A program made the position numbers and the translations under genes. Below the pieces are notes generated by a model. The model was given only the letters and a program-made list of their open reading frames with translations. It was not told where the DNA came from and searched no databases. 34,302 nt of DNA from Bacteroidota bacterium (GTDB lineage Bacteria; Bacteroidota; Bacteroidia; CAIKAF01), in contig JAQCBQ010000003.1 of NCBI GenBank assembly GCA_027621385.1, positions 1-34,302 on the forward strand. The letters run 5' to 3'. This document shows, piece by piece, positions 1,046-29,740 of the stretch (position 1 is the first letter of the stretch; each line of letters begins with the position of its first letter).

Positions 1046-2635
1046 ATGAGAAAATATGTTTTTTTCTTGGGCATGCTGCTGGGGCTGGTCGCCTGCAATC
1101 CCTCCGAAACCAACTGGGAGGTGGAGGCCTTAGCTCCGCTGATGCACAGCCGAATGACCATTCAAAATTTGGTGGGCGATTCTTCGGTGGCCGTTGATCC
1201 CAACGGTGATTTGATTCTGGAAATTCAGGGCAATGCCCTTCCGCTGAATTTGGATACGCTGTCGGCGTTCCGAACCTTGGCGGTAAACGATACTTTTTAT
1301 TGGGACTATCCGGCCATTACCATTTATCCGGGCATTGATATGCAGCTGCCGCCCATTTATATGAATTTTTATGTGCCCAATGCGGAAATGGTGGAGGCAC
1401 TGATGGAAGGTGGAAAAATCGATGTAGCAGTAACTTCATCCATTCCCCGTAAAATGAATTTTAGGTACGGGATTCCCATGGCTCGGTTGAACGGTCAGCC
1501 GATTGGGTTTTCGGGAAGTTTGGCGGCCTGGCAGCCCGGACAAAATCCGGTGGCCCTTAGCCGCTCCTTCAATTTGGCAGGCCATAAACTGGATTTGCGC
1601 GGGTTGGATTTGACGGGCTCAAACCGCCTGGAAATTCTGGTGGTGCCCTCCATTGCGGCCGGAGAGGAGCCATTGAATGTTCAGCAAGGCCAGGCGCTGT
1701 TTACCATTTCTACCCAGTTTACAGATATGGATCCCCTGTGGCTGCGGGGCGCGTTTTTATCGCAAGATTTGGACATTCCCGCTTCCTTGACGGCCATTCC
1801 TGAACTCAGCAAATTATCGGCCGATGCGGTTCAATTTGATCGGGCCAGTTTGGTGCTGCGGCTTGAAAATACGCTGGGTGCTGAACTCAAGGTCCGACCT
1901 CGGAGGTTCTGGGCAGAGCGGAGTCAAACCGGAGCTCAGGTAGATTTGCAGCATGCGATAATCAACAAAAATGTATGGATAGATCGGGCAGTTTGGAATG
2001 GAGGGGTTGGAGCACCTGCTCCCAAAACGTATTCTTGGGAAATCAACCATCAAAACTCCAACATCCTTGATTTTTTGTCGGCCATGCCTGATAAAATTGG
2101 GGTAGAGGTGGATGTCAGCGTTAATCCCATGGGGAATACGGCAGGTTTTATGGATTTTGTGTATCCGGATGCGCTCCCTAAATTCAGCATTGATGCCCGA
2201 TTGCCCTTGAAGTTTGCGGCTCAGAATTTGGCTTTTTCCGATACGGTGGCCTGGACCTTGCAGGAATCGGAATACGAAGCTCTTAAAAGCGCCACTCTGT
2301 GGCTGAAGGGGGAAACCATGTTTCCTTTTGAAACTCGTTTGCTGCTTGAAATGCTGGACGGTAGCGGACAGGTTTTAGACACCTTGATTCAGAATGTGGT
2401 GGTTCCTGCCGGTCAATTGAATCCCAATACAGGTCAGGTGGAACAGGCCATGGCTTTCAATCAGAGCGTAGAGCTTACCGAGGCCCGGCTTCAGGTTCTG
2501 AAACAAACCGAATTTTTTAAGCTTAGGGCTTTTTTCAATACGCCCCCCGGAGGCAATGTGGTTTCCATGAAGAGCCATTATTACATGGATTTTAAATTGG
2601 TGGCCCGGGCCGGAATCAATATTGGATTTAACTGA
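1046..2635 (+). CDS. Putative lipoprotein of unknown function
   Basis: 529 aa ORF; N-terminal MRKYVFFLGMLLGLVAC lipobox; stop overlaps the next ATG (TGATG). Confidence 0.8.
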   Translation: MRKYVFFLGMLLGLVACNPSETNWEVEALAPLMHSRMTIQNLVGDSSVAVDPNGDLILEIQGNALPLNLDTLSAFRTLAVNDTFYWDYPAITIYPGIDMQLPPIYMNFYVPNAEMVEALMEGGKIDVAVTSSIPRKMNFRYGIPMARLNGQPIGFSGSLAAWQPGQNPVALSRSFNLAGHKLDLRGLDLTGSNRLEILVVPSIAAGEEPLNVQQGQALFTISTQFTDMDPLWLRGAFLSQDLDIPASLTAIPELSKLSADAVQFDRASLVLRLENTLGAELKVRPRRFWAERSQTGAQVDLQHAIINKNVWIDRAVWNGGVGAPAPKTYSWEINHQNSNILDFLSAMPDKIGVEVDVSVNPMGNTAGFMDFVYPDALPKFSIDARLPLKFAAQNLAFSDTVAWTLQESEYEALKSATLWLKGETMFPFETRLLLEMLDGSGQVLDTLIQNVVVPAGQLNPNTGQVEQAMAFNQSVELTEARLQVLKQTEFFKLRAFFNTPPGGNVVSMKSHYYMDFKLVARAGINIGFN

Positions 2636-13210: not shown

Positions 13211-14063
13211 TGCCAATTCTTCCTTCACCTCCTTTTTACATCAAGCATTTAACGAGGATGGTTCTGATTTGGGCGATGTAACCTCATTGGGCATTTTCGG
13301 TAAGCATCAACAGGCAAAGGCCCTGTGGTTGGCCAAAGAAGATGGAGTGTTTTCTGGGGCTCAGTACATTGCACCGATTTTTCAATTTGTTGACCCCAAT
13401 GCGCAATGCAATCTGTTGATTCATGATGGCCAACCTTTTCATTCAGGAGATGTATTGTTGGAAGTTCATGGGCTGGCTCATGCCTTGCTCTCCAGCGAAC
13501 GCATTGCCTTGAACCTGGTGCAGCGCATGTGCGGCATTGCCACCAAAACCCATACCCTCTGCCAACGCATAGCTCATACCCATTGCCGCTTGTTGGATAC
13601 GCGCAAAACAACTCCGCTGCTGCGCAGTTTTGAAAAAGAAGCGGTAAGGCATGGGGGAGGTCAAAATCACCGCATCGGACTTTTCGATATGTGCATGATT
13701 AAAGACAACCATCGGGATTTTGCCGGTGGCATTACCCCCGCATTTCAACGCCTAACACAGTACTTGAAATCCCAACATTTGGATTTGCCGATTGAAATCG
13801 AAACCCGCAACCTCGACGACGTAGCTGAAGTTCTTGCTTTACATGCACCCGTTAAACGCATCATGTTTGATAATTTCAGTCCCGAGCAGGTCCGCCTGGC
13901 CGTAAATTTGGTGCAGGGCTCCATCGAAACCGAAGCCAGCGGAGGCATCAATGAGTCCAATTTGGTCAGCTATGCTGAAACAGGAGTCGATTTCATTTCT
14001 ATGGGAGCCTTAACCCATTCGGTTCGAAGCATCGATATTAGTATGAAAGCGTTTCTGCCATGA
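13203..14063 (+). CDS. nadC: Nicotinate-nucleotide pyrophosphorylase (carboxylating)
   Basis: Start at MIDANSSF; LNLVQRMCGIATKT, LLDTRKTTPLLRSFEKEAVRHGGGQNHRIGLFDMCMIKDNH, EASGGINESNL. Confidence 0.97.
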   Translation: MIDANSSFTSFLHQAFNEDGSDLGDVTSLGIFGKHQQAKALWLAKEDGVFSGAQYIAPIFQFVDPNAQCNLLIHDGQPFHSGDVLLEVHGLAHALLSSERIALNLVQRMCGIATKTHTLCQRIAHTHCRLLDTRKTTPLLRSFEKEAVRHGGGQNHRIGLFDMCMIKDNHRDFAGGITPAFQRLTQYLKSQHLDLPIEIETRNLDDVAEVLALHAPVKRIMFDNFSPEQVRLAVNLVQGSIETEASGGINESNLVSYAETGVDFISMGALTHSVRSIDISMKAFLP

Positions 14064-14956
14064 AGGGCCGTTGGATTGTGTTCTTGCTTGGCAAACCCGA
14101 ACTTCAAGGTTGGCTGAAGCAAGTACAATCGTTTTCCCCGCCTGGATTCGGCGGAGTTTCCCTGTGGCGCATCGCCAATTACTTTTTAAACGGAGATCAA
14201 CGCAACAGCTTGTCGCTGCGCGCTTCATCGGTGGCATTCCAGCTGATGCTCGCCTTTTTTCCCTTTTTGATTTTTTTGGTGAGCCTGATTCCATTTTTTC
14301 CGGGAGGACAGCTTGGATATGAGTGGTTTCGGCTGGGCGAGGAGCTGCTTCCGCCACCTCTTTTTGAAGTGGTTGGTCCCATCATTGCCGATGTACTTCT
14401 GAAAAAAAGGGAGGGCTTTGTATGGATTACTTTGTTTGTTGGATTATGGCTCTCTTCAGCCGGAATAAAGGGTTTGATTCAGGCCTTCAATGCCTCAGCT
14501 TTAATTTTAGAAGAACGAAAACCCGGTCAAGTTCGAATTATTTCGCTGTTGGTTATGCTGTTGGGCAGCTTGGCCTTAGGCTTGGCCATCACCATTTTTC
14601 AGGCCATAGACTTTTTATCTGGAACGTTCGCCTGGCTTTCAAGTCACTTGGGCTGGTTGTTTAGCCTCGGCATGACCTGGGTGTTTGTAGCGGCCTTATT
14701 TCGCATTGCGCCGGCAAAATCCTTGGGACTTCGCTTTTTCTCAGCCGGAAGTTGGATTGCTTCCCTGTTTTTACTCTTATTTTCCTGGGCTTTTGGGCTC
14801 TATGTCGAGCGGTTTTTCCAATACAATAAGGTGTTTGGCGTGGTGGGCGCCGTTCCAATGGCCATGATTTTTTTATACCTGGCCGCGTTGGCCTTGCTCA
14901 TTGGATTTGATGTGGATGCCGGAATTGCAAGGGGGAAGGCGGCTTCAAAAGGTTGA
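14060..14956 (+). CDS. YihY/BrkB family membrane protein
   Basis: SLSLRASSVAFQLMLAFFPFLIFLVSLIPFFP and multiple hydrophobic helices; ATGA overlap with nadC. Confidence 0.9.
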   Translation: MKGRWIVFLLGKPELQGWLKQVQSFSPPGFGGVSLWRIANYFLNGDQRNSLSLRASSVAFQLMLAFFPFLIFLVSLIPFFPGGQLGYEWFRLGEELLPPPLFEVVGPIIADVLLKKREGFVWITLFVGLWLSSAGIKGLIQAFNASALILEERKPGQVRIISLLVMLLGSLALGLAITIFQAIDFLSGTFAWLSSHLGWLFSLGMTWVFVAALFRIAPAKSLGLRFFSAGSWIASLFLLLFSWAFGLYVERFFQYNKVFGVVGAVPMAMIFLYLAALALLIGFDVDAGIARGKAASKG

Positions 14957-14971
14957 TTTTAGGTTTGATTT

Positions 14972-15121
14972 GGGCGGCAGACGGGCTTTCAGGGCTAGTC
15001 CGCTTCAAAAGCTGATTGGTACAGCGGCTTTGCGGGGGCTTCCAAGGTCGCCTCCGCAGCGCGCGTACCATTCAGCTTTTGTGCGCGTACTAGCTCCTTC
15101 AATCCCTGCCGCGGGGCGGCG
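14972..15121 (+). repeat. Copy 1 of an intergenic structured (hairpin) element family
   Basis: GGGCGGCAGACGGGCTTTC-AGGGCTAG-TCCGC ... AAAAGCTGATTGGTAC (15007-15022) pairs 15/16 with GTACCATTCAGCTTTT (15065-15080); apex GCTTCCAAGGTCGC (15038-15051); right end GCGTACTAGCTCCTTCAATCCCTGCCGC. Confidence 0.85.
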
Positions 15122-18650: not shown

Positions 18651-18803
18651 TCGCCGCCGGCGGGCGGGATTGATTCCGTGTAGCGCGCAAAGATGCCGTC
18701 GGTAGGCGGCGCGCGGCGAGGAGGCGACTTTAGGAGCCACCGCAGCCCGCAGCCGCCCCGAACGGCAGCTGCGTACTACCGGAGAAAGCCCGGTTACCCG
18801 CCC
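18651..18803 (-). repeat. Copy 2 of the intergenic structured (hairpin) element family, opposite orientation
   Basis: On the minus strand: GGGCGGGTAACCGGGCTTTC-TCCGGTAG-TACGC ... apex GCTCCTAAAGTCGC (plus 18724-18737) ... GCGCGCTACACGGAATCAATCCCGCCCGCCGGCGGCGA; imperfect GC-rich arms between. Confidence 0.82.
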
Positions 18804-18817
18804 AAATCTAAATCCAA

Positions 18818-20107
18818 TTAGTGGGAAAAGGCCCAAAACGTCGGTTCAGGCAATTTCCATTGATTTAACAGTGTTTTTCGGAACAGATTCAGCGCTGCAA
18901 ACGAGCTGCGTTCAATGTTCCCAGAACGGTCAGAAGCCATTTTAAATGCACGGGAATAGGTGCCTTCCGGACCTGAAATTCCCACCCAAATCAAACCCAC
19001 GGGCTTTTCGGGCGTACCCCCACCAGGGCCCGCAATTCCTGAAGTACTAATTCCATAAATGGCTCCGGTTAAATTCCGAACTCCTTTTGCCATAGCCTCA
19101 ACCACCTGGCTGCTTACGGCACCATGCTGATTGATGTCTTCAGGATTAACTCCCAACATTCTGATTTTAACAGAGTTGTCATAAGCAACGACGCCTCCCA
19201 TAAATGCCGCTGAGGCTCCAGACACCGCTGTCAACAAGCTGGCTATGTTGCCCCCCGTACAGCTTTCTGCCGTGGCCAGCGTAGCCCCGCTTTCGATTAA
19301 ATGCTTCAATACCTGTTCCGGCAGTTCCTGATGGTTCAATCCAATGCACTCGTAACCAAGAAGCTGCTGAAGTTTCTCTGCCTCCAATTGGAATTCTTCT
19401 TGTCCTGCCTTGCTGGGTGAGGTCAAGGACAAACGGAGTCGGACTCGACCTGCTTTTGGAAGATAAGCCAGAGAAATATGGTCGGGCAATTGATTTTCCC
19501 ATTCCCGCAAATGAACCATAAGTTGCGATTCCGGAATGCCTTCGGTGTGAAAGGTCATGTGTTGAATGGGGGCCAATTGAAATTTGGATTTTAAGAAATC
19601 CAATCCGTAGGACTCCATTAAATATTCCATTTCGCGAGGAACGCCGGGCAAACTGATTAAAATGCCATTTTCGGTATCGAACAACATGCCTGAGGCTGTA
19701 CCAATTCGGTTTAGCCAGGTGCTGCAAGAACTGGGCAGTTCTGCCTGACCGCGGTTTACCTCATCCAGGCTTCGGCCTCGGGCTTGCATAAATGCCTGTA
19801 AGACCTGCAGCACCTGTTCGTCGGTTCGCCAGCTGTCATTAAAAAATTCCCGCAGTGTATTTTTTGTAATGTCATCTTTTGTTGGACCAAGTCCGCCGGT
19901 TAAAATTAAGATGTGCCCTTCCTGCATCAGTTCTTTCAATGTGCTTTCAATGCTGGATTTGGAATCGGCGATGCTGCGCTGCTCTACTACCTGCAGTCCG
20001 ATTTCGTTCAATCGGGCAGCCAACCACGCGGCATTGGTATTAATAACCTGACCAATCAGCAATTCATCTCCAATGGATACGAGGTAAACAGCAGTGCTTT
20101 TTTTCAT
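18818..20107 (-). CDS. cinA: CinA family nicotinamide-nucleotide amidase
   Basis: IGDELLIGQVINTNAAWLA, LTGGLGPTKDDITK, ATAESCTGGNIASLLTAVSGAS, YGISTSGIAGPGGGTPEKPVGLIWVG. Confidence 0.96.
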   Translation of the reverse strand: MKKSTAVYLVSIGDELLIGQVINTNAAWLAARLNEIGLQVVEQRSIADSKSSIESTLKELMQEGHILILTGGLGPTKDDITKNTLREFFNDSWRTDEQVLQVLQAFMQARGRSLDEVNRGQAELPSSCSTWLNRIGTASGMLFDTENGILISLPGVPREMEYLMESYGLDFLKSKFQLAPIQHMTFHTEGIPESQLMVHLREWENQLPDHISLAYLPKAGRVRLRLSLTSPSKAGQEEFQLEAEKLQQLLGYECIGLNHQELPEQVLKHLIESGATLATAESCTGGNIASLLTAVSGASAAFMGGVVAYDNSVKIRMLGVNPEDINQHGAVSSQVVEAMAKGVRNLTGAIYGISTSGIAGPGGGTPEKPVGLIWVGISGPEGTYSRAFKMASDRSGNIERSSFAALNLFRKTLLNQWKLPEPTFWAFSH

Positions 20108-28303: not shown

Positions 28304-28822
28304 ATGCGCATTCTGTTGCTCAGCGATAGCCATGGTGCCTTACCTAAAAAAATCGAACCATTCCTTAAAGAAGCAGATGAAATCTGGCATGCCGGTGACA
28401 TCGGTCCTTCAGGTTGCCTTGATTTTTTGGAAAGTATGGCTCCGGTGCGGGCAGTGTATGGCAACATCGACGGCCGGGAAATTCGCCTCCGATGCCCGGA
28501 ATATCTAAACTTTAATGTTCAAGGCTTGTCCTTTTTTATGATGCATATTCTGGGGCGTCCCGGTCGATATTCGGCTCAAGCCAAGTCCCTGATTCAAAAA
28601 CAGTCCCCTAAATTCGTCATTTGTGGGCACTCCCATATCGCTCTGGTGGCTCCGGGTCAGTTTCCCGGAACCTTGCATTTAAATCCTGGCGCTATTGGCA
28701 ACCACGGCTGGCATAAATCCATCACTGCGCTCCGCTTTCAAATTGAAAATCAGGCACTTTCGAATCTTGACTTGATTGATTTGGGTCCGCGTGGCACCGA
28801 GCAGCCGATGGTATATTTCTAG
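28304..28822 (+). CDS. YfcE/MJ0936 family metallophosphoesterase
   Basis: RILLLSDSHG, IWHAGDIG, AVYGNIDGREIR, VICGHSHIALV, LNPGAIGNHG. Confidence 0.95.
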   Translation: MRILLLSDSHGALPKKIEPFLKEADEIWHAGDIGPSGCLDFLESMAPVRAVYGNIDGREIRLRCPEYLNFNVQGLSFFMMHILGRPGRYSAQAKSLIQKQSPKFVICGHSHIALVAPGQFPGTLHLNPGAIGNHGWHKSITALRFQIENQALSNLDLIDLGPRGTEQPMVYF

Positions 28823-28830
28823 TATTTTTT

Positions 28831-28972
28831 GGGCGGGTTTCGGGCTTTCAGCGGCAGTACGCGGGGAAGTTGGGGGCGGCAGTGCAGAAAAAGGAGCTCC
28901 TCGCGTCGCTCTTTTTCTGCGCTGCCGCCAGCCCAACTTCCCCTTGCGCGCTGCCTGCTTCAATCCCGCCCG
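28831..28972 (+). repeat. Copy 3 (best structured) of the intergenic hairpin element family
   Basis: GGGCGGG (28831-28837)/CCCGCCC (28965-28971) terminal inverted repeat; GGGGAAGTTGGG-GGCGGCAG-T-GCAGAAAAAG (28863-28893) pairs with CTTTTTCTGC-G-CTGCCGCC-AG-CCCAACTTCCCC (28911-28943); apex GCTCCTCGCGTCGC (28896-28909). Confidence 0.9.
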
Positions 28973-29047
28973 CAATGGCCCAATACCTCAACGCTGATGT
29001 TAATAAATTTAAGGCCAATGGCACAATAATCAAGATGCAATTGGATG

Positions 29048-29740
29048 CTATTCGGAAGTTAAATCGGACAAAAATTGCTGCTTTAACTGGGCGGAATGCC
29101 GAAACGATCGTTCTGCCCAAGCAATTTTTAAATCCAATTGTTCTGCCAAACTAAGTCCAAATTGACTTGGCTGTTGTTCCCGCATTTTCCAGGTAAGGTG
29201 GTGCATGCACACGGCCGCAGAAACACTTACATTTAGGCTTTCAGTAAATCCAACCATTGGAATTTTCATGTAGCCGTCAGCCGAGTGAAGCGCCTCTTCA
29301 CTCAAGCCCTGCATCTCAGTTCCAAAAACAAGGGCCAATGGAACACTGCAGTCCATGGTCTCTAAATTTACATCGTTCTTATGTGGACTGGCAGCGTATA
29401 TGGTATATCCTAAGGTCCTCAGTTTGGAATAGCATTGCTGTACCGCATCCTCACCTGAATACCTGTGAATGCTCAACCAACGGCTACTGCCCAGTGAAAT
29501 TTCGTGGCTGGTGCTAAAGGGATTTGTTTTTTCAATAACATGCACATCCTGAACCCCGAAGCAATCGCAGGAACGAAGTACAGCACTGGCATTGTGCGCT
29601 TGAAAGAGATTTTCTAAAACAATGGTCAACCTTCGCGTACGCAAAGCCGCTTTTTCATTGAACAACAACGCCTTATGAGGCGTAATTTGTTCCAACAAAC
29701 ATTCCAGGTAGCTCGACTTCCGATCTCCCGGAACATCCAT
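29048..29740 (-). CDS. TrmH/SpoU family RNA 2'-O-methyltransferase
   Basis: TRRLTIVLENLFQAHNASAVLRSCDCFGVQDVHVIE, LALVFGTEMQGLSEEAL, IPMVGFTESLNVSVSAAV. Confidence 0.95.
   Translation of the reverse strand: MDVPGDRKSSYLECLLEQITPHKALLFNEKAALRTRRLTIVLENLFQAHNASAVLRSCDCFGVQDVHVIEKTNPFSTSHEISLGSSRWLSIHRYSGEDAVQQCYSKLRTLGYTIYAASPHKNDVNLETMDCSVPLALVFGTEMQGLSEEALHSADGYMKIPMVGFTESLNVSVSAAVCMHHLTWKMREQQPSQFGLSLAEQLDLKIAWAERSFRHSAQLKQQFLSDLTSE

What the first reader, a model, noticed from the sequence alone, without database searches (positions are those of the whole stretch)
28831..28972. Structured intergenic element family, best copy: conserved ends, ~30-bp hairpin and a conserved apical motif
Seen directly: a 142-bp block with terminal inverted repeat GGGCGGG/CCCGCCC, a conserved left box CGGGCTTTC and right box TCAATCCC, a basal stem AGCGGCAG/CTGCCTGCT, then a long hairpin. 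The hairpin arms GGGGAAGTTGGG-GGCGGCAG-T-GCAGAAAAAG and CTTTTTCTGC-G-CTGCCGCC-AG-CCCAACTTCCCC have 30 Watson-Crick pairs, one T/G and a 2-nt bulge. The apex contains GCTCCTCGCGTCGC. The same architecture recurs at 14972-15121 and 18651-18803 with different middle-stem sequence. Nothing coding explains it. Inference: a REP/MITE-like mobile hairpin or a structured RNA family. I recognise no named family with this exact layout (constant ends, constant apex, variable stem).
Basis: partly seen in the sequence, partly recalled or inferred. Interest (0 to 1): 0.86.

Follow-up and report, generated by a model that had tools for sequence, protein, structure and literature searches.

The report
Giant Flavo-1-type dispersed hairpin repeat
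The three hairpins are copies of a 145-base palindromic repeat that occurs about once every 8-9 kb in this group of Flavobacteriales, and it is an enlarged relative of a motif catalogued as the RNA "Flavo-1", but its copies ignore the direction of transcription and its arms pair too strictly for an RNA, so it looks like a DNA-level repeat.

Summary
All three window copies belong to one family: at least 149 copies in this 2.36-Mb genome and about one per 9 kb in a near relative. It is homologous to Rfam RF01705 "Flavo-1" (reverse strand): searches in both directions land on the same loci, although the window copies themselves fall below Rfam's threshold. This form is a genus-specific giant version (145 against 76 positions) with a long variable stem and conserved apex GGCTCCTNNNGTCGCC. 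Orthologous copies diverge about 1.7% while their flanks diverge 7.5%, so the element is constrained. Evidence points to DNA rather than RNA: random orientation in same-direction gene gaps (61 against 55); no G.U preference in the variable stem (24 G.T against 37 A.C; tRNA control 22 against 0); no U-tract after the hairpin on either strand. It is not a RAYT-driven REP: Y1 transposase is absent from three high-copy genomes, and Y1 genes in relatives carry a different repeat. At about 75% genome identity, same-site copies are mostly no more alike than copies elsewhere, so the family turns over. Best reading: a strand-symmetric, REP-like palindromic DNA element read by an unidentified protein.

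The parts
28831..28976 (+). Element copy A (the finding): TIR GGGCGGG/CCCGCCC, left box CGGGCTTTC (28841-28849), apex GCTCCTCGCGTCGC (28896-28909), right box TTCAATCCC (28959-28967)
   Evidence: R1 match 28832-28976, 113 bits
14972..15115 (+). Element copy B
   Evidence: fold z -5.8; R1 match 14973-15115, 117 bits
18651..18803 (-). Element copy C, on the minus strand, with the exact core GGCTCCTAAAGTCGCC at 18723-18738
   Evidence: R1 match 18657-18802 minus, 133.5 bits
28811..28830 (+). T-rich, C-poor 5' flank of copy A (a family-wide feature of the last ~20 nt)
   Evidence: family profile
28304..28822 (+). Upstream ORF whose stop lies 8 nt before copy A
29048..29740 (-). Convergent ORF on the other side of copy A
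14060..14956 (+). Upstream ORF whose stop lies 15 nt before copy B
18818..20107 (-). Minus-strand ORF whose stop end faces the 5' end of copy C, 14 nt away

Best explanation
The element is a giant, genus-specific form of the Flavo-1 superfamily: a dispersed palindromic DNA repeat that sits in intergenic gaps, close to stop codons and away from promoters, in either orientation. I infer that an unidentified protein recognises the basal boxes (CGGGCTTTC / TTCAATCCC) and the apex (GGCTCCTNNNGTCGCC) on an extruded or single-stranded hairpin, and that the arms stay complementary because that DNA hairpin is what is read, or because one arm templates repair of the other. Over longer times copies are lost and new ones appear at other or the same sites; over short times they are fixed and conserved. 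Shown: family, copy number, homology, constraint, strand symmetry, turnover. Inferred: DNA as the acting form, a protein partner, hairpin recognition, dispersal mechanism.
For: Homology to Flavo-1: RF01705 scores loci that R1 found independently (L083 E 4e-4, L081, L079), and model R2, trained only on this genus, gives 6 hits in 24 Flavo-1 loci, all 6 at the RF01705 position and strand, each weak (E 0.02-0.7); control loci gave 1 chance hit in 113 kb. Orientation: same-direction gaps 61 with and 55 against transcription, p 0.64; G036 9/11 and G004 4/7; a published F. psychrophilum transcriptome also found Flavo-1 hits 'indistinctly' sense or antisense, many outside the newly defined transcribed regions (PMC9723704). 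Strict Watson-Crick arms: variable stem G.T 24, A.C 37 against about 3,100 WC pairs; tRNA stems 22 G.T, 0 A.C. Constraint: 51 orthologous copies, flanks 7.46% substituted, apex 0.54%, left box 0.98%, variable stem 2.0%; paired positions 0.85% against unpaired 3.9% (counts). Placement: 1.54 per kb of convergent gap, 1.04 tandem, 0.66 divergent. Turnover: at about 75% genome identity 8 of 11 same-site copies are no closer than many copies elsewhere, and some sites differ in presence.
Against: No protein partner or mobilising enzyme was identified. No clean empty site with exact ends was recovered. Single-sided changes in orthologous pairs lean to A.C over G.T (13 against 4), which would fit G.U tolerance on the Flavo-1 RNA strand, though the larger set does not repeat it strongly. 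When the 5' end faces a stop codon it sits very close (median 21 nt), so placement is not fully symmetric. The tRNA control is helped by ARAGORN accepting G.U pairs.
Confidence: 0.6

Rival explanations
1. A bidirectional RNA hairpin at transcript ends: when transcribed from either side the hairpin protects mRNA 3' ends or aids termination, so orientation does not matter.
For: Close to stop codons (median 21 nt on the 5' side), enriched in convergent gaps; very stable fold; pairing conserved. REPs are reported to stabilise mRNA and cause termination (PMC6006769).
Against: No U-tract after the hairpin on either strand; no G.U preference on either strand; Flavo-1 hits in F. psychrophilum often lie outside the newly defined transcribed regions; about 15% of copies lie between divergent genes (33 of 224).
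Confidence: 0.22
2. A REP/REPIN moved by a RAYT (Y1 tyrosine transposase).
For: High-copy intergenic palindrome; every close pair is a tail-to-tail inverted doublet, about eight distinct sites; Bacteroidetes TnpA-Y1 subclass 2.6 is flanked by 'atypical secondary structures' (PMC6006769).
Against: No PF01797 in G000, G001 or G005, all with at least 79 copies; copy number does not follow Y1 number over 40 genomes. In Y1 loci of the same genus and family (L209, L210, L212) the gene sits beside repeats of AGCTCCGTAGGAGC, a different palindrome. A Flavo-1 box scan around 12 Y1 loci found none; one R1 hit lies about 775 bp away in L214. No GTAG/CGTC foot at the ends.
Confidence: 0.07
3. A MITE of a DDE transposon.
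For: Terminal inverted repeat, high copy number, intergenic.
Against: No target-site duplication signal for lengths 2-12 over a range of boundaries; the strong signals were internal covariation. Median nearest paralogue only 84% alike, maximum 96%. No autonomous parent was looked for.
Confidence: 0.06
4. A conventional one-strand non-coding RNA, as Rfam classes Flavo-1.
For: Compensatory changes; slight A.C excess would fit the Flavo-1 strand.
Against: Random orientation in three genomes, hundreds of copies per genome, no G.U preference.
Confidence: 0.05

Closest known systems
Flavo-1 RNA motif, Rfam RF01705 (Weinberg et al. 2010, PMC2864571)
   Same: Basal boxes and internal loops (GATTGAA-CGG ... 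GAAAGC), stem with a variable distal part, multi-copy, Bacteroidota; R1/R2 and RF01705 land on the same loci.
   Different: 145 against 76 positions, long near-perfect stem, conserved apex GGCTCCTNNNGTCGCC, GC-rich ends, at least 149 copies; no Flavo-1 match up to E 10 around copies A and C. Strand symmetry and strict pairing do not fit the RNA label.
REP / REPIN / BIME with RAYT (PMC6006769, PMC3733652, PMC3116915)
   Same: Intergenic, high copy number, palindromic, near stop codons, some inverted doublets.
   Different: Several times longer than the 20-40 bp REPs, no GTAG or CGTC foot, no RAYT in three high-copy genomes; the genus has a separate REP (AGCTCCGTAGGAGC) beside its Y1 genes.
MITE
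   Same: Short, non-coding, terminal inverted repeats, many copies.
   Different: No target-site duplication found; no parent element known.
Intrinsic transcription terminator
   Same: Strong hairpin just past stop codons.
   Different: Hairpin of about 50 bp, no U-tract on either strand, orientation ignores transcription.

Membership tests
Flavo-1 (RF01705) | Basal sequence/structure boxes of the model | tested here: met
   Reciprocal: RF01705 hits R1-found loci; R2 from this genus hits only the Flavo-1 positions in 24 loci, 6 of 6, individually weak, control
Flavo-1 (RF01705) | Score at or above Rfam gathering threshold (42 bits) | tested here: not met
   Window: only a tRNA at gathering; no Flavo-1 up to E 10 around copies A and C. 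Met in same-family genomes G006, G008, G012
Flavo-1 (RF01705) | Transcribed as an RNA | not testable with these tools
   No RNA-seq; literature ambiguous (PMC9723704)
REP/REPIN with RAYT | Y1 tyrosine transposase in the genome | tested here: not met
   PF01797: 0 in G000, G001, G005; 1 in G003
REP/REPIN with RAYT | Cognate repeats flanking the Y1 gene | tested here: not met
   L209, L210 and L212 show AGCTCCGTAGGAGC repeats beside Y1, not this element
REP/REPIN with RAYT | 5' GTAG or CGTC foot, 20-40 bp | tested here: not met
   Ends are T-run + GGGCGGC and GCCGC; 145 bp
REP/REPIN with RAYT | Inverted doublets | tested here: met
   All close pairs are plus/minus, 3' ends facing; doublets are a minority of copies
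MITE | Terminal inverted repeats | tested here: met
   GGGCGGC/GCCGC
MITE | Target-site duplication | tested here: not met
MITE | Autonomous parent transposon | not tested
   No search made
Intrinsic terminator | U-tract directly after the hairpin | tested here: not met
   C/A-rich 3' flank on plus, A-rich on minus
Intrinsic terminator | Orientation follows transcription | tested here: not met
   61 against 55, p 0.64

The most novel reading that the evidence does not exclude
Flavo-1 is not an RNA but a strand-symmetric chromosomal DNA hairpin system of Bacteroidota, with up to hundreds of sites per genome read by an unknown protein (chromosome organisation, topology or a new ssDNA transposition system), in which hairpin-templated correction keeps the stem perfectly paired while its sequence drifts.
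Probability: 0.3. Interest if true: 0.82.

Novelty: new variant of a known kind. Interest (0 to 1): 0.58.

Why it matters
Flavo-1 has been listed as a structured RNA since 2010 with no known function. The copies here are numerous and constrained enough to test what it is, and three simple statistics (orientation, G.U preference, missing U-tract) point away from RNA. If right, an Rfam family should be re-described as a DNA repeat, and there is an unknown protein or dispersal system to find that is not the RAYT system. The wobble-symmetry test can be applied to other high-copy 'RNA motifs'.

Tried and rejected
Flank pairing as an extension of the stem: rejected, real flanks pair no better than re-paired ones. 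Target-site duplication: none. RAYT: rejected. Rfam microRNA hits on copy A: far below gathering scores, chance matches of a long hairpin. G000 against G003: 51 of 51 cleanly syntenic copies shared, too close to show insertions; one further apparent absence had a broken flank. First tRNA control had the stem ends wrong and was redone. Pattern hits of the apex in unrelated taxa look like scattered single chance hits and were not pursued.

Full report
What is there. The window is contig C38 of a 2.36-Mb, 246-contig genome. The element at 28831-28972 is as described and folds far better than shuffled sequence. Copies at 14972 (plus) and 18651 (minus strand) are the same thing. All three lie between convergent genes, with the 5' end 8-15 nt past a stop codon.

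The family. The apex GGCTCCTNNNGTCGCC occurs 78 times in this genome, against 0 for the pattern read backwards. Twenty-eight copies aligned give a consensus stem in which 33 of 38 pairs show two-sided compensatory changes. Model R1 built from them finds at least 149 copies at E <= 0.01; 150 candidates was the cap. In 1.19 Mb of the near relative G003 it finds 132, about one per 9 kb, roughly 1.6% of the DNA. Same-genus genomes G001, G003 and G005 are also full (capped at 79), G002 and G004 hold a diverged form (55 and 51), and same-family genomes have 0-21. Matching contig lengths and hit positions identify G003 as MAG LaPlata_bin-1703, G001 as ErkenSummer_bin-6618 and G005 as K_DeepCast_35m_m2_130, recorded as Flavobacteriales or Bacteroidetes MAGs and, by their names, probably lake bacteria.

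Relation to Flavo-1. At gathering threshold Rfam finds nothing but a tRNA in the window, and a search around copies A and C up to E 10 gives no Flavo-1. But on loci that R1 found in other genera, RF01705 matches the reverse strand at E 4e-4 to 0.28, and it passes its cut-off in same-family genomes. The reverse test: R2, built only from basal parts of copies of this genus, gives six hits below E 1 in 24 Flavo-1 loci, all six at the RF01705 position and strand; each is weak on its own. Control loci gave one chance hit. Classical Flavo-1 copies in G036 show the same design, constant base and variable distal stem. Flavo-1 passes its cut-off in 35 of 297 genomes of the phylum and in none of 14 controls. 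I conclude homology; the window form is a giant variant that fails the formal Rfam score.

Constraint. Of copies in G000 and G003 with both flanks mapped, 51 pairs are shared. Median element identity is 99.3%. Immediate 60-nt flanks are 7.46% substituted, against 0.54% in the apex, 0.98% in the left box and 2.04% in the variable stem. From the counts, paired positions are substituted at about 0.85% and unpaired ones at 3.9%. The element is under purifying selection or active homogenisation.

DNA or RNA. Three tests point to DNA. First, in gaps between genes of the same direction the element lies with transcription 61 times and against it 55 times (p 0.64); in G036 9 and 11, in G004 4 and 7. 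Second, in the variable stem, scored without favouring wobble, G.T mismatches number 24 and A.C 37, while tRNA stems give 22 and 0. An RNA stem should accumulate G.U on the functional strand; a DNA hairpin, or arms that correct one another, need not. Ortholog pairs lean to A.C over G.T 13 to 4, a small sample that would fit the Flavo-1 strand; I do not dismiss it. Third, the sequence after the hairpin is C/A-rich on plus and A-rich on minus, so no U-tract follows on either strand. The F. psychrophilum transcriptome paper independently says Flavo-1 hits are indistinctly sense or antisense and that many lie outside its newly defined transcribed regions (PMC9723704).

Placement. Density is 1.54 per kb in convergent gaps, 1.04 in tandem and 0.66 in divergent gaps. 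When the 5' end faces a stop it is 12-52 nt away (quartiles); distances to start codons are larger. Every close pair of copies is tail-to-tail. The gene calls are my own codon-score ORFs, not a trained gene finder.

Mobility. G000 and G003 share all cleanly mapped sites, so little moved recently. Against the K_DeepCast and Erken genomes at about 75% identity, 11 elements had a same-orientation partner at the syntenic site, 4 a flipped one and 4 none, in one direction of comparison. Among the 11, only 3 are each other's closest copy; the other 8 rank 15th to 73rd. So sites are reused or homogenised, and copies turn over. Exact empty sites could not be aligned, and no target-site duplication shows.

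Mobilising enzyme. PF01797 is absent from G000, G001 and G005. G000 is 94% complete and fragmented, but G001 and G005 are 100% and 99% complete. In the Y1 loci of G002, G004 and G010 that I folded, the gene sits beside repeats of AGCTCCGTAGGAGC, a different palindrome. The RAYT route is therefore unlikely for this element. No other enzyme class was searched.

Judgement. A strand-symmetric palindromic DNA repeat, homologous to Flavo-1, with an unidentified reader protein, is best supported (0.6). A bidirectional transcript-end hairpin is the main rival (0.22). Binding, hairpin extrusion and arm correction are inference.

Noticed in passing
L209, L210, L212 (Y1 transposase loci of G002, G004, G010): Y1_Tnp genes sit beside many copies of AGCTCCGTAGGAGCG, a REPtron-like arrangement that is separate from the element studied.
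   Followed up: partly
L214:1903-1947 (+) and 2046-2090 (-): Two inverted sub-threshold matches to Rfam Acido-Lenti-1 (RF01687) lie just beyond a Y1 transposase gene; Acido-Lenti-1 may also be a REP-type DNA repeat rather than an RNA.
   Followed up: no
G036 copies L369, L370, L372, L375, L377: The variable distal part of several Flavo-1 copies contains other repeat-like palindromes (e.g. GCTTCGACAGGCTCAGCCTGA) as if inserted into the stem.
   Followed up: no
L110:1-294, L135:1799-2154, L145:6395-6719, L126:1-46: A roughly 46-nt unit repeated at about 86-nt spacing, shared by the K_DeepCast and Erken genomes; the spacing looks CRISPR-like, not tested.
   Followed up: no
G000 contigs C8, C26, C91, C143, C181, C215: Several contigs begin inside an element copy, so the repeat probably breaks the assembly.
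   Followed up: no
window:34255-34302 (+): A tRNA match cut off by the contig end.
   Followed up: no
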